From Lamellibrachia satsuma (lineage: Eukaryota; Annelida; Polychaeta; Sabellida; Siboglinidae), in assembly GCA_033239005.1 (NCBI GenBank), contig BSQZ01000022.1:4993001-5057000 (forward strand): DNA of 64,000 bases, given 5' to 3'. The position numbers and the translations under genes were made by a program. Under the pieces are notes generated by a model that saw nothing but the letters and a program-made list of their open reading frames with translations, made no database searches and was not told the origin of the DNA. Shown one piece after another: positions 45,076 to 61,945 of this stretch; within the stretch, counting starts at the first letter, position 1, and every line of letters starts with the position of its first letter.

Positions 45076-45076
45076 C

Positions 45077-46393: not shown

Positions 46394-46778
46394 CGTTGTC
46401 GTCGAATATGTCGGCCGTGCGTTTCTTGGACGTCCGTTTCTTGCGACGTCTCGTTACTGCAGTGCCGAACGTCCTTGCACCCGCTCCTCTTATACGTTTA
46501 CCAGGGGGTCGCGGAATACTGCTCAGCACGGCATCGGTGACGCGTCGTTTGGCAGCCGTTTTTATGTTCTGGCCCGATAAGACGTCGCCAGCTATGCGAA
46601 CGCCGGTCTTCAACGCTCCCCTGCCCAACGCCACGGCACCTCTCTTGATGAGCGGCATGGCGCTGCGCAACAGACCGCCGAACAGACTGCCCAGTCCGTG
46701 ACCTCGCTGGTATTGCGCACCGGCGAAGTAGGGCAGCGCACCGCCAGCCTGACGCGCGTAATAATCGTTGTAATTCAT
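46377..46778 (-). CDS. small basic virion/core-like protein
   Basis: 133 residues. The N-terminus is Tyr/Gly rich, residues about 25-65 form an amphipathic helix region (SLFGGLLRSAMPLIKRGAV), and the C-terminus is strongly basic (TRRRKKRTSKKRTAD). Position between the two capsid genes and the amphipathic-plus-basic layout resemble adenovirus minor virion proteins of the pVI/pX kind; the link is by context, not by aligned residues. Starts at ATG within a TGATG overlap with the minor capsid stop. Confidence 0.7.
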   Translation of the reverse strand: MNYNDYYARQAGGALPYFAGAQYQRGHGLGSLFGGLLRSAMPLIKRGAVALGRGALKTGVRIAGDVLSGQNIKTAAKRRVTDAVLSSIPRPPGKRIRGAGARTFGTAVTRRRKKRTSKKRTADIFDDNDGVRA

Positions 46779-47608: not shown

Positions 47609-47918
47609 GACGTCTCAACGTGGGATTGGGCAGTAGGTAACCCAAAGAACTACTCAACAGAGCCGTCCACAGATTAGAATCGACGTGACCTTTCGTCAGG
47701 TTGTAAATGCTGATCAGAATGACCGTGTACAAGACGACGACCTGACACAGAAACACGATCTCCTCTTTGGGGCACTCGGTACCGAACAGATGCCAGGGAG
47801 TGCTGTCTGGCTCGTTCGGTGCAGCGTCAGTACAGTCCTCGTGTTCGTTCGCCTCTTTCTCCTCGTCTATGATGGTGGTGGTGCAGGTCGGTAGGGGTGG
47901 TGTCGCGTCGTGTGGCAT
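47598..47918 (-). CDS. conserved Polinton membrane protein
   Basis: 106 residues. The N-terminal half is acidic and polar. One strong membrane segment lies at about residues 56-74 (VFLCQVVVLYTVILISIY) and a second weaker one ends LGYLLPNP. This C-terminal block recurs in Polintons next to capsid genes, but no function is known to me. It could be a virion membrane or morphogenesis protein. Confidence 0.7.
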   Translation of the reverse strand: MPHDATPPLPTCTTTIIDEEKEANEHEDCTDAAPNEPDSTPWHLFGTECPKEEIVFLCQVVVLYTVILISIYNLTKGHVDSNLWTALLSSSLGYLLPNPTLRRHGD

Positions 47919-47948
47919 TGCTCGAATGCAGTGTCGGCATGTGCGAGG

Positions 47949-49016
47949 CTAGTCTTTATAGTTGACGAGTCCCTTGGCATCGATCCAGCTGTTGAAGTGG
48001 GAGGAATGGCCGAACCATTTCACCAGAGCTTCCTTTCGTCTACCGACCGTACGGCGTTTCAGTACCGCTTCAACACGGTACACCTTATCAAAGGGTACCG
48101 TCACCTTCTGCAGCTCCAGTTCGTAGAAGGTACCCTCCAGCACTTCGCCGAGATCGTCCCGCAGCCGATACACGGGTGGATCGGAGGGGTGAACCTCGTG
48201 TATCGTGAACAACTCTTCGCTCCAGTTCGTCTCGTAGCCCTTTTCGAACGTGCGTTTGTACTTGCTGACACGCACGCGATCCGACACGTGCAACTTGGGC
48301 ACGCCCTTACCATCGTGACCGTACAGACGTTGCCACACCTGTTCCTGGTTCTGTGCATTCACCTGTGACGGAGCCATACCGATCATGCGGTGGCGGGCAT
48401 TGTTATACGATCGCATCAGGTCCGGAAGGATGTCGATGTACCGCCACGTCTGGTGTTTCGTGAAGTAGCGCCACATGCGCTTCTTCAACGTTCCGTTGAA
48501 CCGTTCCACGACGGCTGCCTTCGTCTCCGCGTTGTGCGTGTAGAAGTAATGTATGTCGTAACGCTTCAATAGCGCCTGAACGGATTTGTTCCGGAATTCT
48601 GTGCCTTTATCCGTCTGCAAGGTCTGGGGGCGAACGTCGACGAACGTGGATTGCAGCGCCGCCACCAACGACGCCGCGGACTTGTTCTTCATGGGAACAC
48701 ACCAGGCCACTTTCGAGAAGACGTCGATCATCGTGAGGAGAAAGGCCATACCGTTGTTGAAGCGTTTGAACTTCGACATGTCCACGAGATCGGCCTGCCA
48801 CTGCTGATGCATACCACCCACGACGACTTGTCGTCTCTTGAAATGACGTCTCGCTGGTTTGTGTAAGGTGTAAGTGTCCTGTGCCGACAACCATGCCTTG
48901 ACGGTCTTCTCTGGCAGGCGCGTGACGCGTCGCAAGCCAGCGACGCCGCCATAACTGCCTACCTTCGTGGGATCGAAGTAGACCCCACTCAAGGTGCGGT
49001 CTCCCCTCTGTGCCAT
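47949..49016 (-). CDS. INT: retroviral-type integrase with C-terminal chromodomain
   Basis: 355 residues from the ATG at 49016, which overlaps the stop of the upstream 51-codon gene in a TGATG; the frame is open further upstream but that part is non-coding in this frame. Catalytic triad: D76 (WQADLVDM), D136 (LQTDKGTEF) and E171 (VVERFNGTLKKR). The C-terminus (YRVEAVL...EALVKWFGHSSHFNSWI) is a chromodomain, which may guide insertion by binding modified histones. It would insert the linear element and make the 6-bp duplications. All catalytic residues are intact. Confidence 0.95.
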   Translation of the reverse strand: MAQRGDRTLSGVYFDPTKVGSYGGVAGLRRVTRLPEKTVKAWLSAQDTYTLHKPARRHFKRRQVVVGGMHQQWQADLVDMSKFKRFNNGMAFLLTMIDVFSKVAWCVPMKNKSAASLVAALQSTFVDVRPQTLQTDKGTEFRNKSVQALLKRYDIHYFYTHNAETKAAVVERFNGTLKKRMWRYFTKHQTWRYIDILPDLMRSYNNARHRMIGMAPSQVNAQNQEQVWQRLYGHDGKGVPKLHVSDRVRVSKYKRTFEKGYETNWSEELFTIHEVHPSDPPVYRLRDDLGEVLEGTFYELELQKVTVPFDKVYRVEAVLKRRTVGRRKEALVKWFGHSSHFNSWIDAKGLVNYKD

Positions 49017-49171
49017 CAAAAGAGGAGGACCGATGCGTTGACGGGGGCGGTGACGTTGACTCCGGAGTACGACTGCTGACGAATGACGAGGAGCACGCCG
49101 ACGTATATTAGGACACACACTATGGCACCCACAACGCAAGCGGTGGAACAACGGTCTAGTAGCGTAACCAT
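49016..49171 (-). CDS. tiny membrane protein (51 aa) upstream of integrase
   Basis: Short gene: ATG at 49171, stop TGA at 49018-49016 whose last base starts the integrase ATG. It has a short polar start, one membrane segment (TACVVGAIVCVLIYVGVLLV) and a short tail ending NASVLLF. It overlaps the upstream small gene by 16 bases. The tight overlaps on both sides support a real gene; function unknown. Confidence 0.6.
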   Translation of the reverse strand: MVTLLDRCSTACVVGAIVCVLIYVGVLLVIRQQSYSGVNVTAPVNASVLLF

Positions 49172-49290
49172 AGTCTGAATAACACCTGTTGTATAAGAAC
49201 GCCGGCTGCAACGTCTCCCAGCAAGGTGAGTCCTTCGAACAATAGCGCAGCGACGAGGGAACGGTACGCGTCCTGTGGATCGACGAGCAT
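49156..49290 (-). CDS. tiny membrane protein, tandem copy A (44 aa)
   Basis: Starts MLVDPQDAYRSLVAALLFEG and continues into a hydrophobic helix. It is a duplicate of the gene at 49327-49575, whose matching stretch is MSPDPQDDVYRSIVGAIF. In copy A the upstream ATG of copy B is ACG, so the shared internal Met is the likely start. About one membrane helix; function unknown. Confidence 0.55.
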   Translation of the reverse strand: MLVDPQDAYRSLVAALLFEGLTLLGDVAAGVLIQQVLFRLWLRY

Positions 49291-49326
49291 GACGAACACT
49301 GTGCTACGGACACGCGTCGTACCACC

Positions 49327-49575
49327 TTATACGGTGTTCCGTCCAGCCAATGACGACGAAGTCTTGCGTGATGCGGGGGGAGGGTGGGTGGGTGGACGAG
49401 GAATGGTCCGTTCGTCGAGCGAGAGGGGTTCGAATAACGCCTGTTGCATATAACTCTGGAGTATACCGTGAGCAATCATGTAAAGTCCACTGATAAATAT
49501 CGCACCGACGATGGAGCGGTACACGTCGTCCTGTGGATCGGGCGACATGACGAACACTGCGCTCCGGACACGCAT
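49327..49575 (-). CDS. tiny membrane protein, tandem copy B (82 aa)
   Basis: ATG at 49575 or, by comparison with copy A, at 49548. One hydrophobic helix (YRSIVGAIFISGLYMIAHGI) is followed by a polar, proline-rich tail that ends SRKTSSSLAGRNTV. That tail resembles the last residues of the 261-aa protein upstream (SRKALSSLAGWDNL). The duplicated block therefore covers the 3' end of that gene plus the small gene, about 260 bp in all. Confidence 0.6.
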   Translation of the reverse strand: MRVRSAVFVMSPDPQDDVYRSIVGAIFISGLYMIAHGILQSYMQQALFEPLSLDERTIPRPPTHPPPASRKTSSSLAGRNTV

Positions 49576-49584
49576 CGTGCCATC

Positions 49585-50370
49585 CTATAGGTTGTCCCAA
49601 CCAGCCAATGACGACAACGCCTTGCGTGATTCGGGGGGTGGGGTGGGCATGGTATGTTCCATTCGACGGCTCTGACGGGCGAGGGGTGACCAACTTAGCG
49701 ATCGTCGTGCACTACCCGATGCAGCACGCGGAGGAGCAAGTGACCGGCGAGAGGGAGTGACCGTCGGCTCCGGACGTATGTAGGCTCTCCTGGAGACGTT
49801 ACCGACCAACGTCATGGGTAGGTTGATGGCACGGAGTTGTCGGGCGAATGGCTGCCAACCCGTCGGAGCGGTCTTACTCTTACTCTTACGCAACAGATCA
49901 TTAACGAGATCCACCACGTTACTTCCGACAACCGGCACGCCCTCGTGTATCAGTTCGCCGCGAGCGGTCCACGCGACGTCTCTCTTGAGATGCTCCATCA
50001 AACGGCTGGCTTTGGCCTTCATGGTCTTGGGAACGGTGGCCAAGACGGTGGCCTCCAGTCCGCTAATAGGGGCTCGTGTCGTACCCTCCGACCCCGACTC
50101 CGACGTCACCTCCGGCTCGTTCACCGTGACCACGCGTAGCGGTTCCTTGACGCGTTTATCGGCCAAGGCGTTGTACCGCTGCAACACCTGATTATACAGG
50201 GTCACCTTGGTCCCGTCGTCTAGGTCCGTTCTATCTAGGATGGTCTTCGTCTCGTCGTCGAGGGCTTGCACCTTCCTGCCTAAGGTGTCGGTTGCGGGTG
50301 GGGGTGGGGGTGACCGCAGCGTGTCCAACAGTCGCGGGTCCACCAAGGCCATCCTGCGTGCGTGCTCCAT
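49585..50370 (-). CDS. conserved Polinton protein of unknown function
   Basis: 261 residues. The central block (PKTMKAKASRLMEHLKRDV, RGELIHEGVPVVGSN, VDLVNDLLRKSK, GWQPFARQL) recurs in many Polintons as a conserved, mainly helical protein. The N-terminal part has a proline run and a helical segment. The C-terminal 60 residues are Ser/Arg/Pro rich and end in a short block that is duplicated in copy B. No catalytic motif seen; a structural or packaging role is a guess. Confidence 0.7.
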   Translation of the reverse strand: MEHARRMALVDPRLLDTLRSPPPPPATDTLGRKVQALDDETKTILDRTDLDDGTKVTLYNQVLQRYNALADKRVKEPLRVVTVNEPEVTSESGSEGTTRAPISGLEATVLATVPKTMKAKASRLMEHLKRDVAWTARGELIHEGVPVVGSNVVDLVNDLLRKSKSKTAPTGWQPFARQLRAINLPMTLVGNVSRRAYIRPEPTVTPSRRSLAPPRAASGSARRSLSWSPLARQSRRMEHTMPTPPPESRKALSSLAGWDNL

Positions 50371-50374
50371 GTAT

Positions 50375-50746
50375 CTACCCCCCTGAGGTCAGCGCCTGTC
50401 GGAGCAAGGGTAGCAAGACCGTACTTGCCAACGGTGCTAGGAAGGCCGATAGGAAACCGCCGCTCTGTCCCTCGCCAACCTGCGGCTGCAGCAAGATGCG
50501 TCTTCTTCGGGCAGCAACCGTTCGTTTATTAGCCAACTCGCGTAACTTCGTCTTGTATTTATTCAATCGTCGCCTCTGTATGGCGCTCAATGGAATGTTC
50601 TTTGTTAGTATGTTGTAGGCACACTCGGCCAGTGCACACAGCAGATCGGCGTCGGCGTTGGCGATGATGGCCTTTTTAATTTTGTTGTTCTTGACTCTGG
50701 CCAGAGCCTGTATGCACACGATGTGTCTCTTCACCAGGGCAGACAT
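50375..50746 (-). CDS. small basic Polinton protein with hydrophobic tail
   Basis: 123 residues from the ATG at 50746 (37 bases after the ATPase stop; the frame opens earlier but would overlap the ATPase gene). It starts MSALVKRHIVCIQALARVK. A helical basic core (LSAIQRRRLNKYKTKLREL) is followed by an Arg-rich stretch and a glycine-rich hydrophobic C-terminus (GGFLSAFLAPLASTVLLPLL). This is a recurrent Polinton protein next to the ATPase; its layout resembles DNA-condensing or membrane-active virion proteins, but the role is unproven. Confidence 0.72.
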   Translation of the reverse strand: MSALVKRHIVCIQALARVKNNKIKKAIIANADADLLCALAECAYNILTKNIPLSAIQRRRLNKYKTKLRELANKRTVAARRRRILLQPQVGEGQSGGFLSAFLAPLASTVLLPLLRQALTSGG

Positions 50747-50783
50747 GATGCGAATGAAGAGACTATCCACACACTCGGTCGTT

Positions 50784-51440
50784 TTATACCTTCGGCAGGT
50801 ACACGTACTGAACACGGTCGTCTGGAAATATGGCCGTGCGCAGACGCATGTCCTCGGGCGTGTCCTGTTTGAGATCGATCAATAGATAACCGTACGGTAC
50901 CGCCGTGGCGTCTTTAAACGCCTCTTGCACGAACTTGCCGCGTCCCGGATACATCTGCCGCGCCAAGGTCGCCATCTGCGATGCGTCGCGTGGATTCTTG
51001 AACACCACCATGTACTGGGAATTCAGACTGATGGTGCGACTCTCTTTGTTTTTAGGGAACAGGTTTTGTACGAGATACAGCACGGACGTGTTCCTGTGGT
51101 GACTTTTTTTAGTGAACAGGGTCGTGACCCGTTCGTCCGTTTCCGCCATGAGATCGTCTATGACGATGAGGTTCCTCGTCGTCGGAACGAACATGTCCGC
51201 CGTCGGTAACCCTTCCTCGAATCGCACGTGACCCAAGTCCGTCGTTGCGTAAGCCTCTTGCCATTCTCCGTAACACCACGTTATTTGTTCGGGTGGCGGA
51301 TCGATCATCGCAGCGGCGTGACGCAACATACGCGTCACGAAAGTACTCTTGCCGCATCCCGTCGGTCCGGCGACGACGCACGTGAAGGGGTGTTTCCATC
51401 GGGCATCCATGATTGCGTATGAAACGAGTGCAGCGTGCAT
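50784..51440 (-). CDS. ATP: genome-packaging ATPase (A32/FtsK-HerA type)
   Basis: 218 residues. Walker A is AGPTGCGKST (residues 24-33, Lys31). Walker B is LIVIDDLM (91-98). A sensor-like Gln-Asn pair follows in YLVQNLFP. It would pump the linear DNA into the capsid. A second Met at residue 11 (MDARWKHPF) is an alternative start. Intact. Confidence 0.92.
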   Translation of the reverse strand: MHAALVSYAIMDARWKHPFTCVVAGPTGCGKSTFVTRMLRHAAAMIDPPPEQITWCYGEWQEAYATTDLGHVRFEEGLPTADMFVPTTRNLIVIDDLMAETDERVTTLFTKKSHHRNTSVLYLVQNLFPKNKESRTISLNSQYMVVFKNPRDASQMATLARQMYPGRGKFVQEAFKDATAVPYGYLLIDLKQDTPEDMRLRTAIFPDDRVQYVYLPKV

Positions 51441-51448
51441 CGCCTTTT

Positions 51449-54400
51449 CTATACGTCCACCGGACCCGTGGTCACCCCGTCCTCGTGCACCACGCGTTTG
51501 GGGTAAAAGTACGTGAGTGCATCCCTTTCCTGCACGTACGTCATTACGCTAGAATTATGCACCCGGAAACCACGGTTCGTTCCACCTCCGCTCCGACGGT
51601 TGGTGAGCACCTCCAGGAACGCGTCCTTGTCGATTGTGTTGTGCCGTTTGTTCAGTCCTTTGGTGCTGTACTTGTCGGTCGCTCCGAAACAATAGTACGT
51701 CTTGCTACACAAGCCCACGAACCCGGCACCGGACCACTCGACCTTGAACAGACCCGGTGTCCTCTTGTCGAACGCTCTTCGCGCCTTACAGCACGCATCG
51801 TCTCCGACCCACGGTCGATTGGCGAGACGACAGCGCACGTAGTCGTTCCGATGGTCGTCGCAACATTCCGACGGGAGCCATTCGGAACGATGTCGGAAAT
51901 AATGTTCCCGTAGTTCCGGGGTCACGAGGTCGTCGACGGACTCGCCGGCCAAGGACAAATAGGCGGAATCTGTATCCATCTCGCAGTACTCGAACAGAGG
52001 GCGCTCCACGTATCTGACGATGAAGTCGTAATAGAACTGCAACATGCGCATCTTGGCGTATTGCAGAACGAAGAATCCCACGTGTACGGGTAGGGTGTAC
52101 TTGACGACTTTCTTGTTCAACTCTATCTCGTACGCGTCGTCGACGACGAGATCGAGTTGTCGGAACCGTCGATCGTTGACCAGGAGCGATGCCGCCTTCT
52201 CCGTGCAGTAGCTGACGTCACGATGTCGGTCAACGTTGGTGATGGTCTTTCCGTAGCCCGAGTTCCCCAGCAACTTCATGGTGTCCGCGATGATGGTCTT
52301 GTCTCGGTGAACGTCGCCCTCGCGTCGGGCCTTGGACACTGAATCGCCGAACCGCCGGAAACACGGAATAGGATCGTATTCGACGACCTGGTACACGTGC
52401 AGCACCTCGAGACCGTGGTCCAGATACCATCGCAGCAGTGGCGTTGCGAGCAGTATCTTATCGCCGCAATAACTACCCACGAGCATGCGACGCGGAGTCT
52501 TCATGATGTCGTGTTCTTCGGCGTATCGACGCATGAACGGACCGAGATCCTCGCGCATCATACTGACGTTCTTGAACACGGGCTGCATCTCGGCAAAGTG
52601 CGCGCGCAATTCTTCCGGTACGCGTATGTCGCACTCGATCATGCCGAACACGGTTCCCGCACGCACTCCGTTCAGGATCTGTTGCGACGTCATGGTCCAG
52701 CGCACGTGTCGACGTCGAGGAAATGCAGCATCCAGACACTCACGTACGGCCGGGGTTCGTCTCATCTCTTTCCACTCGCATTCCCACAGCTCGACGACTG
52801 TGACAAAGTGACGTAGATAGGCGGTGGTCTTTCGGGTCTCGGCGAGCAGTTCCGCCATTGGTTTCCCGTTGACTGCGTTCACCTCGTCACGGTTGCACGC
52901 ACAACCGTGAAAGTAGCACCCTTGGAACTGATAAGCCGTCTTCGTCTCGCTACACCATCCGTCCACCCGATGTTTGCCTATTCTCTTCTCTCGTCCGTTG
53001 ATCTGATGTCGTATGGGACGTCCCGTGCGTTCGGATTCCCACGTCAACCATTCCCCAGCCATCTGTCCGTACAGCTGCGCCGATTCGGGGCGGAAGTCAT
53101 TCTCTGCTCGTCGTCGCGTGTACCATCCCATAGGCATGTCTTGCATGAGCGACCACAGGTACAGCGCGTTCGCATCGTAGCCGACGATCGCTCGGCACGG
53201 ACGAGCCGCCTCTCCGTACTCGTTCTGACGTAGCGTGGTGACACCTTTCTCGTGATAGCGATGAAAAATGATCGACGGCCCGCCTACGATGTTTTCTTTG
53301 ACGAGGTCGTGCAGGTCTTTATTCTTCTCGTTGAAGACGGTAAAGTAGGTCTTCTCTGGAAGGTCGTTGCACAGGTACAGCAGGGTCAGACCAGGTACGC
53401 TGATGCCTTGCTTGAACATGTCTATTCCCCGTTGTCGATAGAACGCGAACTGTTTGTCGATGGCCTGTAGAAAGGGAACCACGTCCCTGTTGTTGTACCA
53501 GACGAGAAAGTCGCGCAACGTCGTCATGCCATTGACGCGCCAGGCCTCCTGACAACTGGCGTAATCCTCGTCTGAAATACCTTCGTTCTTCAGTCGACTG
53601 AAGAAGGCCTCTTTCGGTGGAAGAGCGGTGTCGTCGAGTCTCTCCAGCCGGTCCATGTACTCGTACGGGAAATGACCTTTCGTCACCTCGCATCCGTACG
53701 CTTTCAGATACTTGTCGTAGCTGAACCCGGGGGCTATGTAGTTGATCATGTCGAGGAATTTCAGTTGATCCGTCGAAAGACACATGAAAGTGTTGTTGCG
53801 TTTGATGACGAACATTGCCCCGACGCCATCGTCCTCGGATTTCTTGTTGCCCTCTTGCTCCCTCTCGTCCTCGGTCTCGTTTTGTTCCACGGTCTTTGAC
53901 GTCGCCAGGAAGTACGGTATGAGGAACTGTTTGACGGCATTGAGATCATACTTCCCCGAATTGAACCCGATGACAGGTAACTGACGCATCCATCCATACA
54001 GTTGTCCCATCAGCGTTTTGTACGGATTGGTTGCCGGTCGAGCGTCCTTGTCAGTGGCTGAGCGTGCAGCCTCCTCCCGTGCGTCCCAATTCGACATCTC
54101 TTCGGCGAGTTGGTCCAACACGTGATCGTATGAGCCTTTGATCTTGTCGTACGCGGCCTCGCTCATCGATTGCAGGATGGTCATCATGTCGCTCACCAAC
54201 TTGTTGGTGTCTCCGTCCGTGACGATGCATGTCACCTGTTCGTGTCCGGGTACGTTGGATGCCACGCTGACGCTCAGCGGGACGTGACGCGCAACCCAGT
54301 GAACCTGGGCACTGTCGGACGGAAGGTGTTCGGTGTCGAACCAACACTCGAAGTCGAAGGTGGCTCGGTACGGATAGTACTGCAACGCTTCGGCCACTCG

Positions 54401-54976
54401 GATGTTCTCGTCGGCCAGGCGTTCGAACACCGATGGAGTCGAATGGTACACGCCACCAGGATAGACTCGGCGCACACCCCCCGTACACGTGCTCTCGTGG
54501 TTGCGTAGATGCCATGCGTCTTTCCACAACGAGTCACCGCACTTCCGACATCTGTACGAGTGACAGTACATGCGTATATCCTGGATGAGGGAAAAATGCG
54601 TCCCGTGAAGATTGAGGTAGAGCGTGTCAGGGTACTTACATACCGAGCGACGAACGAGTTCTGCAGTTGACTTTCCATCCTCTCCATCCGGTGGTACTAG
54701 ACTGTACACGCACACATTCGTTTGGAACGTGGTCTCTACACGATAGAGGTCGTCCATCGTGACCCCGGCAAAAGCTGTCATGGGTACGTCGTCTTGGGCG
54801 TAAGTATCGTACAGCGTCTTCACAGCTGGTTCCAATCGACGCTTGTCACATCCTCGATGCAGGGCCAGACATCGGAAGAGACACAGGTTGTCACTGTACC
54901 TTTTGCAATACTGAGGCTCCTTTTCCAATCCGATGACGGCTTTGTTCCTCTTGATGTAGGCTGGAACGTCGGTCAT
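51449..54976 (-). CDS. POLB: protein-primed DNA polymerase B
   Basis: 1175 residues; copies the linear element from its ends. Order seen: an N-terminal DNLCLFRCLALHRG block with a later HGTHFSLI block (near 28-42 and 124-131) that resembles an OTU-like fold; a zinc-binding CRKC...H...H (143-160); 3'-5' exonuclease motifs FDFECWF (D208/E210), FNSGKYDLN (338-346) and YNNRD (494-498). Polymerase motif A is YDANALYLWS (D601), motif B is KLLGNSGYGK (901-910) and motif C is MDTDSAY (D1001/D1003). All catalytic residues are present. The upstream ORF ends in a TGA directly followed, in the same frame, by this ATG; in related elements the two parts are usually one protein. Confidence 0.96.
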   Translation of the reverse strand: MTDVPAYIKRNKAVIGLEKEPQYCKRYSDNLCLFRCLALHRGCDKRRLEPAVKTLYDTYAQDDVPMTAFAGVTMDDLYRVETTFQTNVCVYSLVPPDGEDGKSTAELVRRSVCKYPDTLYLNLHGTHFSLIQDIRMYCHSYRCRKCGDSLWKDAWHLRNHESTCTGGVRRVYPGGVYHSTPSVFERLADENIRVAEALQYYPYRATFDFECWFDTEHLPSDSAQVHWVARHVPLSVSVASNVPGHEQVTCIVTDGDTNKLVSDMMTILQSMSEAAYDKIKGSYDHVLDQLAEEMSNWDAREEAARSATDKDARPATNPYKTLMGQLYGWMRQLPVIGFNSGKYDLNAVKQFLIPYFLATSKTVEQNETEDEREQEGNKKSEDDGVGAMFVIKRNNTFMCLSTDQLKFLDMINYIAPGFSYDKYLKAYGCEVTKGHFPYEYMDRLERLDDTALPPKEAFFSRLKNEGISDEDYASCQEAWRVNGMTTLRDFLVWYNNRDVVPFLQAIDKQFAFYRQRGIDMFKQGISVPGLTLLYLCNDLPEKTYFTVFNEKNKDLHDLVKENIVGGPSIIFHRYHEKGVTTLRQNEYGEAARPCRAIVGYDANALYLWSLMQDMPMGWYTRRRAENDFRPESAQLYGQMAGEWLTWESERTGRPIRHQINGREKRIGKHRVDGWCSETKTAYQFQGCYFHGCACNRDEVNAVNGKPMAELLAETRKTTAYLRHFVTVVELWECEWKEMRRTPAVRECLDAAFPRRRHVRWTMTSQQILNGVRAGTVFGMIECDIRVPEELRAHFAEMQPVFKNVSMMREDLGPFMRRYAEEHDIMKTPRRMLVGSYCGDKILLATPLLRWYLDHGLEVLHVYQVVEYDPIPCFRRFGDSVSKARREGDVHRDKTIIADTMKLLGNSGYGKTITNVDRHRDVSYCTEKAASLLVNDRRFRQLDLVVDDAYEIELNKKVVKYTLPVHVGFFVLQYAKMRMLQFYYDFIVRYVERPLFEYCEMDTDSAYLSLAGESVDDLVTPELREHYFRHRSEWLPSECCDDHRNDYVRCRLANRPWVGDDACCKARRAFDKRTPGLFKVEWSGAGFVGLCSKTYYCFGATDKYSTKGLNKRHNTIDKDAFLEVLTNRRSGGGTNRGFRVHNSSVMTYVQERDALTYFYPKRVVHEDGVTTGPVDV

Positions 54977-55897
54977 TCATACACATCCTATCGGGTGTTC
55001 GATGATGCGACTGACGTAAAATGAGACATTGGTCACGAGTTCGCACACCCACGCCGAATCCGGTCTTTGATTGATGGCCCATTGCAGGACGTCGCGTTCT
55101 CGGATGCGTTCGAGGAACTCATCAAAGTCCTTGCTGTTGGTGATGAGACTGGGCTCGTCCAGGTAGCGTCCACAGCAGTTGCACGAGGGATGGTAGTACT
55201 TGTATTGACCCGTGTTCTTGTTCCTCAGAATGAACCCGTAACTGAGGTTAATCTTGAAAGCGTTGGTCTGTTCCTGGAACACGTTCCTCAACGGCGTCTC
55301 TAGAACGGTCGTGTCCAGAGTCGTTAACCTGTACTCGTACCTGGACTGCAGAGGACCTCTCGCTACACGTGTCCGTATGCTCGACCAGTGCGCTCGTACG
55401 ACATCTAGCAGTTCCGTCGACAGGTTGTCGGCGAAGGGGAGTCGAGCAGGTGGGTCTATGGGGTCTGCATCGGTAACGAGTGGATGGTGGGGTGTGGTGG
55501 GTTCCCTGATTGGTCTCTTTGGCGATGGTAGCTTCGTGACGTCGACGGTACACGCTTTTCGTGCGTGTTTGGTCAGGTCATTGCGTCTAGTGAACGTCTG
55601 TCCACATTTCGCACATGTGTACACTGTGGTCTGTTTTCTATTACTGCTACTGCTACTGCTAAGACGACATACGGACCTCACGTGTTGTTGCAGATCGTCC
55701 CATATCTCAAACGTCGCATCACATTTACACGAATATTTCGTTCGCTTTGCCTGATCGCTAGATGGCACCTCTATTGGTTGCGCCACCGAATACGTGTGTT
55801 CGCTCACTGCCGGTGTCGCATGACTCACTAGGTGGCGTTTTAGCGCTGCGTACGTGTCGAGCACCAGCCCGCAGTGCCGACATTGGTGTCGTTTCAT
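54977..55897 (-). CDS. C2H2 zinc-finger protein / polymerase N-terminal region
   Basis: 306 residues. Three zinc fingers: C6/C9/H22/H26, C57/C59/H72/C77 and C95/C98/H111/C116. After a Pro-rich linker comes a domain with SRYEYRLTTL, FKINLSYGFILRN, DFDEFLERIRERDVLQWA and VTNVSFYVSRI. In other Polintons the same order is found at the N-terminus of the polymerase polypeptide. Here it is closed by TGA, with the polymerase ATG as the very next codon in frame. It may bind the terminal repeats or help priming. Confidence 0.8.
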   Translation of the reverse strand: MKRHQCRHCGLVLDTYAALKRHLVSHATPAVSEHTYSVAQPIEVPSSDQAKRTKYSCKCDATFEIWDDLQQHVRSVCRLSSSSSSNRKQTTVYTCAKCGQTFTRRNDLTKHARKACTVDVTKLPSPKRPIREPTTPHHPLVTDADPIDPPARLPFADNLSTELLDVVRAHWSSIRTRVARGPLQSRYEYRLTTLDTTVLETPLRNVFQEQTNAFKINLSYGFILRNKNTGQYKYYHPSCNCCGRYLDEPSLITNSKDFDEFLERIRERDVLQWAINQRPDSAWVCELVTNVSFYVSRIIEHPIGCV

Positions 55898-56373
55898 GCT
55901 GCTCTACGTGTCTACAACTGAGAGAGAGTGGTCCTTAGTACAGCTATATAGTACGTGTGGTGGTGGTGGTGGTGGTGGTGGTGGTGGTGGTGAAGGGTGT
56001 ATGACCTAAGGTGCGATCCTGTGGTATTGGCTACTGTGTGTCCGATATCGATGGCTACGGGTTCTCTTTCACCTATGTATACCATGGCAACACCACTGAC
56101 AACACGTTTCAATCATTGTATGACTTTTATTGAGTATATACTGCCATAGACATAGACATATTATACATATACATATACACGGTTAGACTTATATAACTAC
56201 TATGATGATGATGACTGTACGGTTTGTGGGAGTGTTCCATCCTCGACAGGGACCCTAGCTTACGTTCGATTATCGACACGCCAGTGGCTAGTAACATGAT
56301 TATTAACTTGTGGGCTTTTACACCGCGACAGAGGTTACGTGCAATGATGGTGATGATGTACTATATAAGTCGG

Positions 56374-56424
<51 letters not shown>

Positions 56425-56592
56425 AGAACTATTACTCTATGTAATACAAGAGAGAGCTACCGTTGCAAACGGTGCTTCTTAATATGACTACGTTTCTACC
56501 ATACAATGAATAAGTATCTGTAATATGACTAAATACAATAAAAGAGAGAGAGAGCTACTAATTAAATGCCGGCGTTTCTACCATGAAAGCTA
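55898..56592. other. simple-repeat region; short ORFs only
   Basis: Holds a (TGG)n run at 55957-55992, a (TA)n run at about 56371-56411, a minus-strand AATAAA at 56131-56126 that could end transcripts of the accessory block, and a 36-bp tandem duplication at 56558-56628 (gctactaattaaatgccggc twice). The duplication repeats the last codons of the possible exon at 56593-56733. Confidence 0.6.
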
Positions 56593-56733
56593 CTAATTAA
56601 ATGCCGGCGTTTCTACCATGAAATCAATAATTATTTGTAATAGACTATGTAGTGCACGTGTCCTCTCGTCTCGTGCTAGTACGGGTGTCTCCTCATTCAC
56701 CTCCTCCTCCTTCACCTCCTCCTTCCCCTCCTC
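56593..56733 (-). CDS. possible alternative 3' exon Z of the acidic gene
   Basis: Minus strand: acceptor tttctttatgtag, then 46 codons and TAG. A Glu/Lys-rich start is followed by TPVLARDERTRALHSLLQII. The helix resembles that of exon Y. Phase 0 after the acceptor, compatible with the donor at 58368. Predicted from sequence only. Confidence 0.4.
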   Translation of the reverse strand, partial: EEGKEEVKEEEVNEETPVLARDERTRALHSLLQIIIDFMVETPAFN

Positions 56734-56751
56734 CTACATAAAGAAATACAC

Positions 56752-56856
56752 CTATTGTTCATCGTGCGTCGATATGATATATTCTATTAGTAGCGTTATT
56801 AATTGACGACTTGCACGCCTACGCGCTTCAATCGGTCGCACAGGTACGTCATCATC
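56752..56856 (-). CDS. possible alternative 3' exon Y of the acidic gene
   Basis: Minus strand: acceptor aatttgttctgtag, then 34 codons and TAG. It starts DDDVPVRPIEARRRASRQLI and ends in a hydrophobic helix like exon Z (LLIEYII versus LLQIIID). Phase 0, the same frame as exons X and Z. Confidence 0.4.
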   Translation of the reverse strand, partial: DDDVPVRPIEARRRASRQLITLLIEYIISTHDEQ

Positions 56857-56933
56857 CTACAGAACAAATTAAAATATATACTAACATTTCACTCCATATT
56901 ACTTAATACTACCTACTACCTCGGTTATGTTTA

Positions 56934-57044
56934 CTAATAATAATAATAATATTCTGTTGACGACATCATATAAGGACCGTTCAATACTCCAGCTCGCTTC
57001 CGAATGCTGACTGGGAGTACGGGTGCCTCGTCGTAAACTTCAAT
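56934..57044 (-). CDS. possible alternative 3' exon X of the acidic gene
   Basis: Minus strand: acceptor gttgttatgtag, then 36 codons and TAG. IEVYDEAPVLPVSIRKRAGV resembles the start of exons Y and Z. The end is a run of TAT codons from an (ATT)n repeat, suggesting decay of the tail. Confidence 0.3.
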   Translation of the reverse strand: MEVYDEAPVLPVSIRKRAGVLNGPYMMSSTEYYYYY

Positions 57045-57126
57045 CTACATAACAACAATAATAATAATAATAATAATACTAATGTTCATATACCGTGGTT
57101 ATAATGTTACTCCTAATTAACAACAA

Positions 57127-57161
<35 letters not shown>

Positions 57162-57205
57162 ATGTTCATATACCGTGGTTATACTAACCACCTCCTGAAT
57201 ACTGT

Positions 57206-58027
57206 TCACAACCTACGGTTGTCGACACGGATGTTACTACGAGCATACGCCACCATTACTGCTTGAAACGCTGCCGACAGTATCGTAGCTGCCAGTGTTT
57301 GGCAAACGTCCTCGGTCACTTCCTCTACCGTGGATGGGACGGATGCCCACCACTGATTCGTTATTATTTGTACAATGCTTTTCTCCATCGTTCGGAAACG
57401 CACCTTGCGCTCTTGGGTGGCCGCGGACTTGTCCTCATCGGTGTCTTCGTCCTCGACGGTCGACGGCTTCGGGTGAGTGATAGTGTGTTGATCTGGTATG
57501 TGGATGTGTCCGCCGTCTGGTGTCACAACGACGGTTTCGTCCGGGAACACATAGAGTCTCGGTGGTGATGCTGATGATGATGCCCTCTCAACTTGCGTGC
57601 TTGCTATCAGTGGTGGCGACGCGGGACTGGACTCGAAGTCCTTGTCGTCATCGTCTTTCTCGGGTGCTGGGGATGAGGCGATGGCTTCTTCATCCACGTC
57701 ATCATAGTAATGAGGGGGGGTCTTGATGATCCAAGGATCATCCTCCTCCTCATTCTCCTCCGTGTCCGATAAATTCTCTACAGGACCCCACGGTAACTGC
57801 TGCGTCGCCGTCGCCACCCCTCCTCCTCTGGTGTTGTCATCTGTCGCCTCATCCTCCGACTCAGTCTCCGACGAGGACCCCCACGGTATTTCCTGTGTCT
57901 CTGGATATTCATCTACCGGGCCTGTCTTCTGCCGTTTCCCCGATGGCGTCACCTCGTCCTCGTCATCTGCATCATAAAGTTCGTCCAACTGGCGCTTGTA
58001 TGCTGTCTCCAGCTGCGTTAGACCCGT
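57206..58027 (-). CDS. acidic protein, spliced second exon (predicted)
   Basis: Open for 273 codons but with no early ATG, so it is best read as an exon. The acceptor gattctttctattcaacag lies at 58028 and joins in frame to the donor ACG|GTGAGT after 58368, 53 codons into the gene starting at 58526. The product is rich in Asp, Glu and Ser, with two similar blocks (QEIPWGSSSE and QQLPWGPVE), a basic KRQKTGP-type patch near the start that could be a nuclear signal, and a helical C-terminus (VCQTLAATILSAAFQAVMVA). No known domain recognised. Possibly a regulatory or transactivating protein; that is a guess. Confidence 0.55.
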   Translation of the reverse strand, partial: TGLTQLETAYKRQLDELYDADDEDEVTPSGKRQKTGPVDEYPETQEIPWGSSSETESEDEATDDNTRGGGVATATQQLPWGPVENLSDTEENEEEDDPWIIKTPPHYYDDVDEEAIASSPAPEKDDDDKDFESSPASPPLIASTQVERASSSASPPRLYVFPDETVVVTPDGGHIHIPDQHTITHPKPSTVEDEDTDEDKSAATQERKVRFRTMEKSIVQIITNQWWASVPSTVEEVTEDVCQTLAATILSAAFQAVMVAYARSNIRVDNRRL

Positions 58028-58526
58028 CTGTTGAATAGAAAGAATCGGTTACATTCGACATATTTTCATCCACGTCGCCCTGTATATCGTTGTATTGGGC
58101 GTACATACTCTTTCTAACCAAATCTGTCACTTGCTGACGCCATTTCATGTTCCCACACGTTGCGATGACATCTATCGATAGCCACCGCAACACGTGCATG
58201 ACCATGCTGACCGATGGTACGTAACGTTCCGTATCATCATTTAAATTCATTATGCGTTGCACCTCGTCACAGGCAAATTGCACGCTGGCGACCTCTAGTG
58301 CCTTATAGAAGGTTTGTTCGTTCGTCATGGCTTCGGCTCGATCACGTAGCCTATCTAAACCACTCACCGTAGCCTCCATATCATCGCTACTGCTTATGGA
58401 TATGACGTCACGCTGTGACGCACTATCGTCCGAGTCATCTGATATTCTAATTAATGGTGGCGGTGAACAGCTGTCCGCAGAGGAGGTGAATAGTATCTCC
58501 GAGCTATTAGCATGTAACCATTCCAT
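57972..58526 (-). CDS. acidic protein, unspliced form (184 aa)
   Basis: ATG at 58526. The N-terminal part has two hydrophobic-then-acidic motifs (PLIRISDDSDD and DVISISSSDD) like SUMO-interaction motifs. The C-terminal two thirds are helical (ALEVASVQFACDEVQRIM, MHVLRWLSIDVIATCG). An internal GTGAGT at codon 54 is a good splice donor, so the first 53 codons may be shared with the exon at 57206-58027 and possibly with exons X, Y and Z. Shared start with different ends recalls the layout of small and large early antigens in DNA tumour viruses, but no sequence similarity is claimed. Confidence 0.6.
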   Translation of the reverse strand: MEWLHANSSEILFTSSADSCSPPPLIRISDDSDDSASQRDVISISSSDDMEATVSGLDRLRDRAEAMTNEQTFYKALEVASVQFACDEVQRIMNLNDDTERYVPSVSMVMHVLRWLSIDVIATCGNMKWRQQVTDLVRKSMYAQYNDIQGDVDENMSNVTDSFYSTDGSNAAGDSIQAPVGRTL

Positions 58527-58552
58527 TACCTTAGAGCGTCCATCGCTGTCGA

Positions 58553-58618
58553 TGACGTCACTGCTTCCGGTCGCAGTAGCCTGTCTGTCACTGCTTCCGG
58601 TCGCAGTAGCCTGTCAAC
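58553..58618 (-). promoter_or_regulatory. CRE and paired ETS-like sites upstream of the acidic gene
   Basis: A palindromic TGACGTCA lies at 58553-58560, 27 bases before the ATG. A 30-bp unit is repeated twice just beyond it (58558-58587 and 58588-58617), each with CCGGAAGC on the minus strand at about 58563-58570 and 58593-58600. CRE plus ETS sites are typical of early, host-factor-driven promoters. No TATA box seen. Confidence 0.5.
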
Positions 58619-58626
58619 AGATGGAT

Positions 58627-59097
58627 TCACACTGTGACTATTTCCATGTCTGACACCGTGTAATTTACATACTGTCCCGCCTCGCGTTTCCTAACGGTCA
58701 CCATGACTTGGGCCCCCCGCAACATGTCCAGTGCTGCATACCGTTCGGCGTCTCCTTTCATGCTCATGTATTCGTTAGCAGTGAATCCCAACACCTGGAC
58801 AGCCTTGGCATTAAATAGGGTTGCCCACACTTCACTACCGATGGCGTCTTGTAGGAGGATACGCATAGCGAACTGATACACTACACCACGCTGCCATCGA
58901 TGAACCGGACACACATACCCGTTGTTTTCGGGACTCACACGTTTGTTACACTGCTGACATGATGGATAAACTATATATTTGTCTTGCACAGCACATTGTA
59001 CTATGGTTAACGGCCGTCTAAATATATAAGTCCCGTTACCTACCTGTCTCTCGAGTTGGCTGACTGTCATCATCATATCGACGTCTTGGGCGGCCAT
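58627..59097 (-). CDS. RPA70-C-like single-stranded DNA-binding protein
   Basis: 156 residues. The central part has the zinc ribbon embedded in an OB fold, as in the C-terminal DNA-binding domain of RPA1: C47-x2-C50, then C63-x2-H66 (one Cys replaced by His). It is followed by YQFAMRILLQDAIGSEVWATLF and AVQVLGFTANEY, the pattern of that family. It is the length of a single OB domain, without the rest of RPA1. It would bind ssDNA exposed by protein-primed strand displacement. It ends in the promoter region of the acidic gene; the upstream promoter has a TATA box. Confidence 0.75.
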   Translation of the reverse strand: MAAQDVDMMMTVSQLERQVGNGTYIFRRPLTIVQCAVQDKYIVYPSCQQCNKRVSPENNGYVCPVHRWQRGVVYQFAMRILLQDAIGSEVWATLFNAKAVQVLGFTANEYMSMKGDAERYAALDMLRGAQVMVTVRKREAGQYVNYTVSDMEIVTV

Positions 59098-59183
59098 TTC
59101 TCTCTCTGCGTGCTGCTGCTAGTGGTCTTGAAGTCGTCTGTAAATCGAAGTGTGGTTGTGTGTCTCGTTCACTCTGCGCCGGG

Positions 59184-59191
59184 TTTATATA
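59184..59191 (-). promoter_or_regulatory. TATA box of the RPA-like gene
   Basis: TATATAAA on the minus strand about 90 bases before the ATG at 59097, giving a predicted start site near 59160. Confidence 0.55.
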
Positions 59192-59312
59192 CACCTCCAA
59201 CTGCCTATGGCGCGATTTCTTATCACAACCCTTGGTCGTGCGCGCGTGATGCTGGATGTCTGGCTTCTATATCTCGCTGTACTCTGTTCACCGGTCTTGT
59301 GACCGGCTCGCA

Positions 59313-59777
59313 TTACGTCTGCTGATGCAATCGAATGAACTCGCGTACTCGCTCGAGTATATGTCCTAGCATGTTCTGACCGGCTTGACCGCTGTATGTT
59401 AGCGCCCCCCAGTATCCTTCACGACTCTTGACCCATTCCTGCAACTGGGAATACCCAGTGTCTAGGAGTCGTTTACGTAGGGTTGGGTCGCGATATTTAA
59501 CAGCAACTAACGCATACATTAGTGAATATCGTTGTTCGTTCCACGATGCACGTAACTGTTCTTTTTCTCGTATGCTCTTGCTGAGGTGTTTCGCCTGTAG
59601 ACCAGTGCGCGTGGACAGCATTTTTTCTGCGGTTTGCAGGTCACCGTGATGCATGCATTTCCGCCATTGGTAAGCGCTTTCGACACTCGTAAATTCTTTA
59701 TTCCACACACGTATCCTGCACACGTAGAAGTTTGACAGGAAATGGCGACCGCCTCTGAAGCGTATATCACGGTTCAT
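59313..59777 (-). CDS. NADAR-family (YbiA-like) N-glycosidase
   Basis: 154 residues, a complete NADAR domain and nothing else. Signatures: FLSNFY (13-18), S-V-E33-S-A-Y36-Q37, a GD (45-46) before a helix, W79-x3-R83, MYALVAVKYRDP (87-98), LLDTG (104-108), YWGA (122-125) and GQNMLG (133-138). NADAR enzymes act on N-glycosidic bonds of ribosides; some remove ADP-ribose from guanine and so reverse DNA-targeting toxins. All motif positions I can judge are kept. ATG at 59777. It has no place in the Polinton core set, so it is an acquired gene, perhaps for counter-defence or NAD/ADP-ribose metabolism. A ctttataac close to the ATG is too near to be a normal TATA box. Confidence 0.85.
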   Translation of the reverse strand: MNRDIRFRGGRHFLSNFYVCRIRVWNKEFTSVESAYQWRKCMHHGDLQTAEKMLSTRTGLQAKHLSKSIREKEQLRASWNEQRYSLMYALVAVKYRDPTLRKRLLDTGYSQLQEWVKSREGYWGALTYSGQAGQNMLGHILERVREFIRLHQQT

Positions 59778-59984
59778 GGTGACTTTATAACGTTAAATTG
59801 TACAGTTACTGTCTTAAATACACGCCGTTCTAGCGCTCTCGAGTACTAGTCACCCCCACTTTTTCCTTGCGTGATGGATGCCCGGTGTCGGTAGGCTGAC
59901 AGTTGCCGGCCGCTTATCTGTTTTCTCATTAGTGTCGTATTGTTCCTCGGGTTGCGTCAGCTGTCTGGTTTATTTCTAGCATGG

Positions 59985-59992
59985 TATATATA
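59985..59992 (+). promoter_or_regulatory. TATA box of the plus-strand two-exon gene
   Basis: TATATATAG about 58 bases before the ATG at 60050; a start site near 60015-60020 is expected. It sits in the 270-bp gap between the divergent NADAR and plus-strand genes, which may be a shared control region. Confidence 0.6.
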
Positions 59993-60049
59993 GACGCTGC
60001 GTTCGTCGTGTCGTCATTACAACCGCCATTGCCTTCGATACCGTTCATC

Positions 60050-60141
60050 ATGCCTCCTATCGTTATGGTGCTCGACTTTGCAGAGTTTTTGACTCTTCTC
60101 AGTGTTATGGGAGATGCGTTGCTCCCACTAATGCGTCGTGT
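60050..60141 (+). CDS. two-exon plus-strand gene, exon 1
   Basis: ATG with MPPIVMVLDFAEFLTLLSV and a following helix, ending at a strong donor GT|gtgagtatt at 60142. Without splicing the frame stops at TGA within the donor. Joined to 60489 the frame stays open: exon 1 leaves two bases and exon 2 supplies the third. Confidence 0.6.
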
Positions 60142-60154
60142 GTGAGTATTTCTT

Positions 60155-60189
<35 letters not shown>

Positions 60190-60367
60190 TTACTATTATA
60201 CTTTCATAGCTCTACATAACTGTACATAGATAATAACTCTTTTCACTGTACATACTGTTCTATCGTTCCTGTGTATACATGTCTCGCCGTGTGTTCGTCG
60301 GGTCCAAGTTCCATATGTAGCGGCTTGCCAGCCGATCGGTTTCGTATTACCTCGTTGCTTGGTTACG

Positions 60368-60445
<78 letters not shown>

Positions 60446-60488
60446 TGTCTATGCATGTTCTCACTCTGGTTGTGTCCTTTACTGACAG
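60142..60488 (+). other. predicted intron with (TTTA)n and (TA)n
   Basis: 347 bases from gtgagt to cctttactgacag. It contains a (TTTA)n run at about 60152-60192 and a (TA)n run at 60371-60442. Confidence 0.55.
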
Positions 60489-61023
60489 AATCCCTCGCTT
60501 TCACTGGGCATGCGTAATGACACAGTTGCTCGTCACGTCAGTCCACCGCCGGGCCTGTCAGGCGACAGTGCTATTTCGAGACGAGTTGTACGACGCCGGT
60601 CTCCTGACGGCATTCGCCGACCATGCAAGCCGTTGGCGTCATGTCATGTCGGACATTGAATTCTATTACGGACCTGGATATCGTACCCATTCTACCGTCC
60701 CTGAGTCGTGGGAAGACGACGACGACGACGACGATGATATCGCCGCCGCCGTCGCCTCCGACACTCACGAGGACTCGGACGATTTCCGTCTCGCATTCAG
60801 GGCTCACATGTTACAGTGGGAGTGCGTCATGCACCAACTCCTGCTGTTACATGCCCCGTCACCCCTCCCTATTTTCCGTCGCCTTCACAGAGGTCCCATC
60901 CATCATCCATCACTCTGCCATCGTCGTCGATCCGTCTCCCTCCGTATTGCATTGGCCCGCAAGTTGACTGCGCGTTCAGTTCGCCGCTCACTCTTGCCGG
61001 CTTTCAACTGTCAGCCCGAATGA
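60489..61023 (+). CDS. two-exon plus-strand gene, exon 2
   Basis: About 178 codons to TGA at 61021-61023. The segment has FHWACVMTQLLVTSVHRRAC and, after an acidic stretch of eight consecutive Asp residues and a short linker, a parallel FRAHMLQWECVMHQLLLL. These two blocks look like a duplicated helix: both have W-x-CVM-x-QLL. The C-terminus is Arg/His/Ser rich. No known domain. It is the only clear plus-strand gene in the element and so divergent from all others. Role unknown; early regulatory gene is a guess. Confidence 0.6.
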
Positions 61024-61047
61024 ACACTTCTACAAACGTTCATTTTT

Positions 61048-61053
61048 AATAAA
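61048..61053 (+). terminator. poly(A) signal for the plus-strand gene
   Basis: AATAAA 25 bases after the stop codon at 61023. Confidence 0.7.
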
Positions 61054-61725
61054 CTTTACTACCGTCATTGATTCATGTATTACAGTTTGCATATTCCCGT
61101 CTTGTATTGCATTGTTTCATGTATTAAAGTTTGCATCATCTTATATTCCCGTCTTGTATTGCGTTTTGTTGGCATATTATATTTTCCACATAGTCCATTT
61201 TCATCCTGCTACATTTTATTTAATGCCATATTATATATATAGTCCATTTTCGTCCTGCTACATTTTATTTAACCAACGGTTCGATTTCCGTCGTCCAGCG
61301 GTTATTTTATAGCCATGCATGTCGGCTAATTAATAACCATTACATATTCCCCTTATGTTTATCGGTTTTACTTTTATTACGTCTTTTGTTCACTCCATAT
61401 AACCCGCTATAACACACATCAATAGCCGTCTCTGCCACATTGTTGCTGTTTATCGCCGATTAGCTCGGCTCCCTTGCTACATTGTACCGATTAGCGTCCT
61501 TTGATCTCGCGCTACGGCTCACAGCTGGATAAACGCCTCGGCTTACACTTAACTCCAGTCGTTCGGATGTCCAGTTGACATTAGCTAACCACTCGGACTG
61601 GTCACTCCGTCGGGTCAGGGTTCAGGTCACGCGGTCACGTGTTTACGTGGGTGGGTGGGTGGGTGGGTGGTGGGTGCTTTACGTGTATTTTCTTTTTTTT
61701 CCTATGTCCACCATCGATGACTACT
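61054..61725. other. right subterminal region with short duplications and G-run
   Basis: No gene. A block with ttgcat and attcccgtcttgtattgc is duplicated at about 61083-61166. A second block, tagtccatttt-gtcctgctacattttattt, is duplicated at about 61189-61271. A (GGGT)n run lies at 61648-61674, about 50 bases inside the right inverted repeat. Confidence 0.75.
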
Positions 61726-61939
61726 GGTCAATATTCGTTCCTCCTCCAGTCCCTAGGGGGCGCTTACCTTACCCAGCATGCACTACGCTCAACTACGCTT
61801 GCCAGGGGGCGCTCTACTGCTCTCTCATTGGCTGCGCGCACTCTTCAACGGGTGGGCGATATTAGGGGCCTTTCCTTTGATCTTCCTTTGATCTTAGATT
61901 GCGGCGATAAGGGGGTCCCAAAAACCTCCGTATACTACT
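61726..61939 (-). repeat. Polinton terminal inverted repeat, right
   Basis: 214 bp, complement of 44104-44317 with two mismatches seen. Ends ...ccgtatactact. Confidence 0.97.
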
Positions 61940-61945
61940 TGCTGA
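61940..61945. repeat. target-site duplication TGCTGA, right
   Basis: Identical to 44098-44103, directly after the right element end. Confidence 0.95.

What the first reader, a model, noticed from the sequence alone, without database searches (positions are those of the whole stretch)
59313..59777. A NADAR-family enzyme inside a Polinton
The 154-residue protein is a full NADAR domain by its motif pattern. Known: NADAR proteins cut N-glycosidic bonds, and some remove ADP-ribose from guanine in DNA, opposing DNA-modifying toxins; they occur in phages and large DNA viruses. I know of no established NADAR gene as part of Polintons. Inference: a counter-defence enzyme against ADP-ribosylation of viral DNA, or against NAD-based host immunity.
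Basis: partly seen in the sequence, partly recalled or inferred. Interest (0 to 1): 0.93.

Follow-up and report, generated by a model that had tools for sequence, protein, structure and literature searches.

The report
ADP-ribose eraser gene in animal Polintons
A virus-like jumping element in what is probably a tubeworm genome carries, in many related copies, a conserved gene of an enzyme family known to strip ADP-ribose off DNA bases, which hints that these animals may attack invading DNA by ADP-ribosylating it.

The parts
59313..59777 (-). NADAR gene, 154 aa (key residues E33, K40, K63, W79, R83, E114, W123)
   Evidence: Pfam E=1.9e-18; fold; residue mapping
44104..61939 (.). Polinton element, 17,836 bp
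   Evidence: TIRs and TSD
44104..44317 (+). left terminal inverted repeat, 214 bp
61726..61939 (-). right terminal inverted repeat, 214 bp
44098..44103 (.). target site duplication TGCTGA, left
61940..61945 (.). target site duplication TGCTGA, right
58627..59097 (-). RPA-like OB-fold protein, 156 aa, next gene downstream of NADAR
   Evidence: Pfam Rep_fac-A_C E=1.4e-12; adjacent in 8 of 8 NADAR-centred loci
57972..58526 (-). o184, unknown function, third gene of the block
   Evidence: no Pfam match; in the same place in 8 of 8 loci and in L007
60445..61023 (+). divergent ORF of 192 aa, unknown function
   Evidence: no Pfam match; present upstream of NADAR, opposite strand, in 7 of 8 loci
54977..55897 (-). 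C2H2 zinc-finger protein
   Evidence: Pfam zf-C2H2 E=8.7e-9
51449..54976 (-). family B DNA polymerase-like, 1175 aa
   Evidence: Pfam DNA_pol_B_2 E=2.9e-5, 23.6 bits, below the cut-off of 25.8
50784..51440 (-). packaging-type ATPase
   Evidence: Pfam Adeno_IVa2 23.8 bits, cut-off 21
47949..49475 (-). integrase with chromodomain (frame from a TTG)
   Evidence: Pfam rve E=6.8e-13, Chromo E=1.1e-5
44596..47608 (-). probable capsid and maturation genes (276, 133, 438 and 159 aa frames): minor capsid, small virion protein, major capsid, protease
   Evidence: by recalled sequence pattern and gene place; no Pfam match; 159-aa frame only E=0.11 to ASFV protease S273R, 438-aa frame none

Best explanation
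The gene encodes a YbiA-type NADAR hydrolase that is a recurrent component of an animal Polinton lineage. It most likely cleaves the N-glycosidic bond between ADP-ribose and guanine in the element's own DNA, chiefly single-stranded DNA exposed during replication, where the neighbouring RPA-like protein would bind and, in one sublineage, is covalently joined to it. It would thereby undo a host (or competitor) ADP-ribosylation of invading DNA. Shown: NADAR family and fold, key residues, place in a Polinton, genome-wide linkage, purifying selection in the copies tested, adjacency and fusion to the RPA-like fold. Inferred: catalytic activity, guanine-DNA substrate, ssDNA setting, counter-defence purpose.
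For: Profile and fold. Residues needed for guanine-ADPr hydrolysis in PMC11543638 (section 12) map to E33, K40, E114 and are kept in 40, 41 and 41 of 41 copies. Median dN/dS 0.223 over 653 pairs. 115 of 150 listed ATPases have a NADAR upstream; reverse order 2 and opposite strand 2 of 258 NADAR places. RPA-like gene next door in 8 of 8 loci and fused in frame in 6 of 6 long-frame copies read. Tested NADARs of several kinds reverse guanine ADP-ribosylation made by DarT1 or ScARP (PMC11543638 passages; PMC11125620 passages). Guanine-N2 DNA ADP-ribosyltransferase activity exists in animals (clam CARP-1; PMC11209040 passages).
Against: No activity was measured. No DarT (PF14487) match in the host genome; pierisin/CARP-type transferases were not searched for. 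The water-bridging Asp (D130) is Glu here and R79 is Lys. NADARs not linked to DarT1 rescued DarT1 toxicity poorly even though active in vitro (PMC11125620). NADARs of cytoplasmic RNA viruses (PMC9503650) show that DNA need not be the substrate. 35 of 150 ATPases have no listed NADAR upstream. The six fusion copies look like one event.
Confidence: 0.45

Rival explanations
1. The enzyme degrades small ADP-ribose-derived immune signals or toxic metabolites (cyclic ADP-ribose variants and the like) made by host NAD-consuming effectors, not DNA adducts.
For: Proposed for phage and DNA-virus NADARs (PMC9503650 passages; PMC7824862 passages). The gene is mostly a stand-alone small protein, as in DNA viruses.
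Against: Adjacency and fusion to an RPA-like fold point to DNA. Measured NADAR activity known to me from the papers is on guanine adducts and riboflavin intermediates.
Confidence: 0.2
2. The enzyme removes ADP-ribose from RNA or acts in RNA processing or repair, as suggested for retrotransposon and RNA-virus NADARs.
For: NADAR occurs in retrotransposon proteins (PMC12477816 passages) and in animal RNA viruses, annelid/bivalve picornaviruses included (PMC9503650 passages).
Against: A Polinton has no RNA genome or RNA intermediate (recalled); the partner fold is of the RPA ssDNA-binding type.
Confidence: 0.15
3. It is a metabolic YbiA-like N-glycosidase (clearing reactive riboflavin intermediates) picked up by the element, with no antiviral role.
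For: Residue E114 is of the YbiA type; TIGR02464 is the best NCBIfam match.
Against: TIGR02464 cut-off not reached by the window protein (69.2 against 73.7 bits; P0003 reaches 75.8); animals do not make riboflavin (recalled).
Confidence: 0.06
4. It is a captured passenger gene, copied along with the element and not selected.
For: 12 of 150 scored copies carry in-frame stops in the matched stretch; 35 of 150 ATPases lack a listed NADAR. Nearest rows outside the Polinton type in my tree are the genome's own C77 NADAR genes.
Against: dN/dS 0.22; key residues kept down to 72% identity; conserved gene order; fusion frame kept open. The 40 added copies were chosen from stop-free rows, which favours intact ones.
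Confidence: 0.05

Closest known systems
YbiA-type NADAR enzymes (E. coli YbiA 2b3w; Phytophthora nicotianae NADAR 8bau)
   Same: Fold, size, the catalytic Glu/Lys/Glu set
   Different: 21-24% identity; Glu for the Asp at the D130 position, one extra residue in that loop, Ser for Gly after Trp123 in 21 of 41 copies; carried by a Polinton
DarT1-linked NADAR antitoxins (DarTG1)
   Same: Family; the Glu and Lys that mutants show to matter; the lysine equivalent to K115 of E. coli C7 NADAR (K63 here)
   Different: Glu instead of Asp at the D171 position; no DarT gene found in the genome
NADAR domains in retrotransposons (Ectocarpus Gypsy Pol; oyster Tx1 ORF1; PMC12477816 passages)
   Same: NADAR carried by a eukaryotic transposable element
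   Different: There fused to or part of retrotransposon proteins; here a separate gene (or an RPA-like fusion) of a DNA virus-like element. Sequences not compared.
NADARs of phages, giant viruses and invertebrate RNA viruses
   Same: Viral NADAR; presumed anti-NAD/ADPr-defence role (PMC9503650 passages)
   Different: 423 phage records match, all under 60% identity; Asp at position 120 in all 14 phage, plasmid and IMG/VR rows aligned, Glu in 33 of 35 Polinton-type rows (1 Lys, 1 Asp)
Canonical Polinton/Maverick elements
   Same: Long TIRs, 6-bp TSD, integrase, PolB-like, ATPase, probable capsid genes
   Different: Extra block NADAR - RPA-like - o184 at one end, with lower GC3 (0.49-0.53 against 0.59-0.78 in the ten other genes measured)

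Membership tests
NADAR superfamily (PF08719) | Profile match above the curated cut-off over the domain | tested here: met
   67.7 bits, cut-off 35.1, profile 11-163 of 163
NADAR superfamily (PF08719) | YbiA fold | tested here: met
NADAR superfamily (PF08719) | Key Glu/Lys/Glu residues | tested here: met
   E33, K40, E114 by the alignment and PMC11543638 section 12; 40, 41, 41 of 41 copies
NADAR superfamily (PF08719) | De-ADP-ribosylation of guanine | not testable with these tools
   needs a bench assay
YbiA riboflavin-intermediate N-glycosidase (TIGR02464) | Score above the curated equivalog cut-off | tested here: not met
   69.2 against 73.7 bits for the window protein; P0003 75.8, P0037 73.6. 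So not filed as this equivalog.
DarT1-linked NADAR (BC4488 type) | Asp at the D171 position | tested here: not met
   Glu (E114) in 41 of 41 copies
DarT1-linked NADAR (BC4488 type) | DarT partner | tested here: not met
   no PF14487 match in the genome (control rings in 1 of 14 genomes)
Polinton/Maverick | Long TIRs and 6-bp target duplication | tested here: met
Polinton/Maverick | Retroviral-type integrase | tested here: met
   rve E=6.8e-13 plus Chromo; PDB integrases E from 2.8e-6
[quoted passage not shown]
   DNA_pol_B_2 23.6 bits, below the cut-off of 25.8; priming type not tested
Polinton/Maverick | Packaging ATPase | tested here: met
   Adeno_IVa2 23.8 bits, cut-off 21
Polinton/Maverick | Capsid proteins and maturation protease | tested here: inconclusive
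   no profile match; protease only E=0.11 to ASFV S273R; assignments rest on recalled patterns and gene place

The most novel reading that the evidence does not exclude
These Polintons carry a dedicated DNA-cleaning module, NADAR plus an RPA-like single-strand-DNA-binding protein (two genes, or one fused protein), that erases ADP-ribose from guanines of replicating viral DNA. Its retention in many copies would betray an antiviral system in annelids that ADP-ribosylates foreign DNA, an animal counterpart of bacterial DarTG1.
Probability: 0.33. Interest if true: 0.92.

Novelty: new variant of a known kind. Interest (0 to 1): 0.74.

Why it matters
The physiological role of animal NADARs is an open question (PMC11125620, passages, says that roles of NADARs across eukaryotes, animals included, remain unclear). 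A NADAR kept under purifying selection in a virus-like element, next to and sometimes fused with an RPA-like fold, gives a prediction that can be tested in vitro: an animal-virus-borne eraser of DNA guanine ADP-ribosylation. It also says where to look for the writer: tubeworm and other annelid genomes.

Tried and rejected

Papers: PMC11543638 passages and section 12; PMC11125620 outline, abstract and passages; PMC12477816, PMC7824862, PMC11209040, PMC9503650 passages; all others only as search listings. 'Not found in print' rests on (0 papers; 0 papers), and on the capped lists (15 of 106; 20 of 91; 10 of 15; 8 of 20): open-access main texts only, no supplements, no Repbase.

Full report
The thing itself. 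Window 59313-59777 is open on the minus strand as a 154-aa protein. It scores 67.7 bits against Pfam NADAR (cut-off 35.1) over almost the whole profile. The profile of its family (A1, 28 rows) finds two convincing PDB chains, P. nicotianae NADAR 8bau (E=4.3e-10) and E. coli YbiA 2b3w (E=5.1e-9), the next being E=0.14. The AlphaFold model (pLDDT 75.7, weakest at 117-121) matches the same two. Against predicted viral structures, 34 matches with E up to 0.001 include NADARs of phages, giant viruses and shrimp nidoviruses.

The element. TIRs of 214 bp at 44104-44317 and 61726-61939 and TGCTGA on both flanks define a 17,836-bp insertion with 52.6% GC; the left flank has 39.5%. The long frames with recognised domains run leftward: NADAR, RPA-like, o184, o260, zinc finger, PolB-like, ATPase, o146, o261, integrase-chromo, then probable capsid and protease genes (capsid and protease names are recalled patterns). 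NADAR, the RPA-like gene and o184 share a lower GC3 (0.49-0.53) than the ten other genes measured (0.59-0.78). TATA-like words stand upstream of both NADAR and the RPA-like gene by eye (sequence printed), so they may be transcribed apart.

Not one copy. In the 735-Mb host genome the window's protein scored 150 places out of 851 candidates: 71-100% identity, 138 of 150 without a stop in the matched stretch, 17 (the window included) identical over all 154 residues. The Pfam profile scored 150 of 573 candidates, all above cut-off; 108 of these were new, union 258 places. The ATPase search scored 150 of 1374 candidates. Joining the lists, 115 of 150 ATPases have a NADAR 5,528-10,466 bp upstream on the same strand; the reverse order occurs for 2 and the opposite strand for 2 of 258 NADAR places; about 0.5 would be expected by chance. 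By ATPase identity the share is 46 of 49 (98% or more), 30 of 40 (94-97%), 22 of 34 (91-93%) and 17 of 27 (90% or less); 35 of 150 lack a listed NADAR. Of 24 NADAR copies at 97% identity or more that had no listed ATPase, I fetched a piece further downstream for ten: 10 of 10 carry PolB, 9 of 10 an ATPase (a 68-78% match or a partial one), 9 of 10 integrase.

Other species. Outside this genome 72 homologues were found with the single sequence and 158 with the alignment, 120 of them listed. None of the 42 with at least 140 aligned residues is identical to the copies I held (a part of all copies); best matches 68-98.7%. Named ones: a partial Lamellibrachia satsuma protein (P0248) and a 3.2-kb contig binned as an endosymbiont of Lamellibrachia anaximandri (L007), which carries NADAR (C-terminal 39 residues only, 77%), the RPA-like gene (53% over the best 115 residues) and o184 (47%) in the window's order and strand, very likely animal DNA in a symbiont bin. 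ATPase relatives of 80-84% occur in an Escarpia laminata symbiont bin. I infer a siboglinid or related annelid host.

Selection and active site. Window plus 40 copies chosen from stop-free rows to span 72-93% identity: 653 pairs with dS 0.1-1.2 have median dN/dS 0.223 (IQR 0.182-0.275; none above 1); window against 37 others 0.194, range 0.139-0.639. The choice of stop-free rows favours intact copies. The residues that the crystal structure and mutants of PMC11543638 single out (section 12) map, through the alignment, to E33, K40, E114, W79, R83 and W123; counts in 41 copies: 40, 41, 41, 41, 38, 41. K63, equivalent to the lysine needed for rescue from DarT1, is invariant in the 28 rows. Departures: D130 is E120, R79 is K67, and WG is WS in 21 of 41. 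The Glu at 114 puts it with the YbiA type, not the DarT1-linked type.

The RPA link. The next gene downstream in 8 of 8 NADAR-centred loci (all with an identical NADAR protein) is the RPA-like OB fold (Rep_fac-A_C E=1.4e-12). In six copies on six contigs (L056, L058-L062; all six 404-407-aa frames) NADAR and this protein are one open frame of 399-402 aa with a linker of about 88 residues; both Pfam domains score in L056. The six differ at dS up to about 0.1, with only whole-codon gaps; dN/dS 0.27 (NADAR), 0.44 (linker), 0.51 (RPA part). I take this as one fusion event that has spread since. It is the best single hint that NADAR works on single-stranded DNA. By recall, Polinton replication is protein-primed and exposes single strands; DarT1 marks guanines in ssDNA (PMC11543638 passages).

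Origin. The genome also has two tandem NADAR genes on contig C77 (L063, L064) whose long, partly repetitive and Arg-rich frames look like host genes. A tree of 46 rows puts the 32 Polinton-type rows (not each checked for Polinton neighbours) in one clade (90/95), sister to C77 (98/95), apart from 12 phage, plasmid and IMG/VR NADARs. At position 120, 33 of 35 Polinton-type rows and both C77 rows have Glu (the two others Lys and Asp), while all 14 phage, plasmid and IMG/VR rows have Asp; but both C77 rows lack the key lysine (Gln for K40). Branches are long (the tree's own warning) and no giant-virus, RNA-virus or other animal rows were included, so capture from an animal host is a lead only.

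Mechanism and rivals. Shown: enzyme family, key residues, place, linkage, selection in the tested copies, RPA adjacency and fusion. Inferred: that it is active, that the substrate is ADP-ribosyl-guanine in the element's ssDNA, and that a host transferase is the opponent. NADARs reverse guanine-ADPr made by DarT1 and ScARP (PMC11543638 passages), and clams have a guanine-N2 DNA ADP-ribosyltransferase (PMC11209040 passages), so the chemistry exists in animals; but no DarT was found in this genome, pierisin/CARP-type enzymes were not searched for, and the PF01129 search did not complete. Soluble ADP-ribose signals (PMC9503650 passages) and RNA adducts are the main rivals.

Novelty. NADAR in transposable elements is known (PMC12477816 passages) and in viruses widely known (PMC9503650 passages, which lists phages, giant viruses, nidoviruses, hepe-like viruses and annelid/bivalve picornaviruses). 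No open-access paper searched held both 'NADAR' and 'Polinton'. New here, as far as searched: a NADAR gene as a lineage-wide Polinton component, and a NADAR-RPA fusion (for the fusion no literature search was made).

Noticed in passing
L056:784-1992(-); L058-L062: NADAR and the RPA-like protein form one open frame of 399-402 aa in six Polinton copies on six contigs.
   Followed up: partly
window 60445-61023 (+): Divergent ORF of 192 aa without Pfam match; present upstream of NADAR on the opposite strand in 7 of 8 loci (79-91% identity where aligned) and at 55-58% in the six fusion copies: probably a real gene.
   Followed up: partly
G000 contig C77, L063 and L064: Two tandem NADAR-containing frames (1277 and 644 aa) with repeats and Arg-rich tails, probably host genes; Gln in place of the key lysine.
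   Followed up: partly
G000, ATPase list: Many ATPase copies at about 90-93% identity share a stop at the same frame length (frames of 221 or 210 aa, 1 TAA), as if a lineage with a differently ending ATPase had multiplied.
   Followed up: no
L095-L104: Several otherwise 95-99% alike Polinton copies carry an ATPase stretch of only 68-78% identity or a partial match, as if exchanged, frame-shifted or recombined.
   Followed up: no
L057 (C32:2878500-2884500): One copy has NADAR run into the second part of the polymerase frame (904 aa), probably by internal deletion.
   Followed up: no
window 35153-36802 (+) and 12630-13217 (+): A NACHT-domain frame (E=2.7e-31) and a DUF4559 frame (E=5.4e-26) outside the element: candidate host innate-immunity genes.
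   Followed up: no
L007 (JAESPD010000129.1); P0244: Bacterial bins (a Lamellibrachia symbiont; a 503-bp 'Chromatiales' contig) hold NADAR sequence of the Polinton type (77% over 39 residues; 49%): probable animal DNA in bacterial bins.
   Followed up: partly
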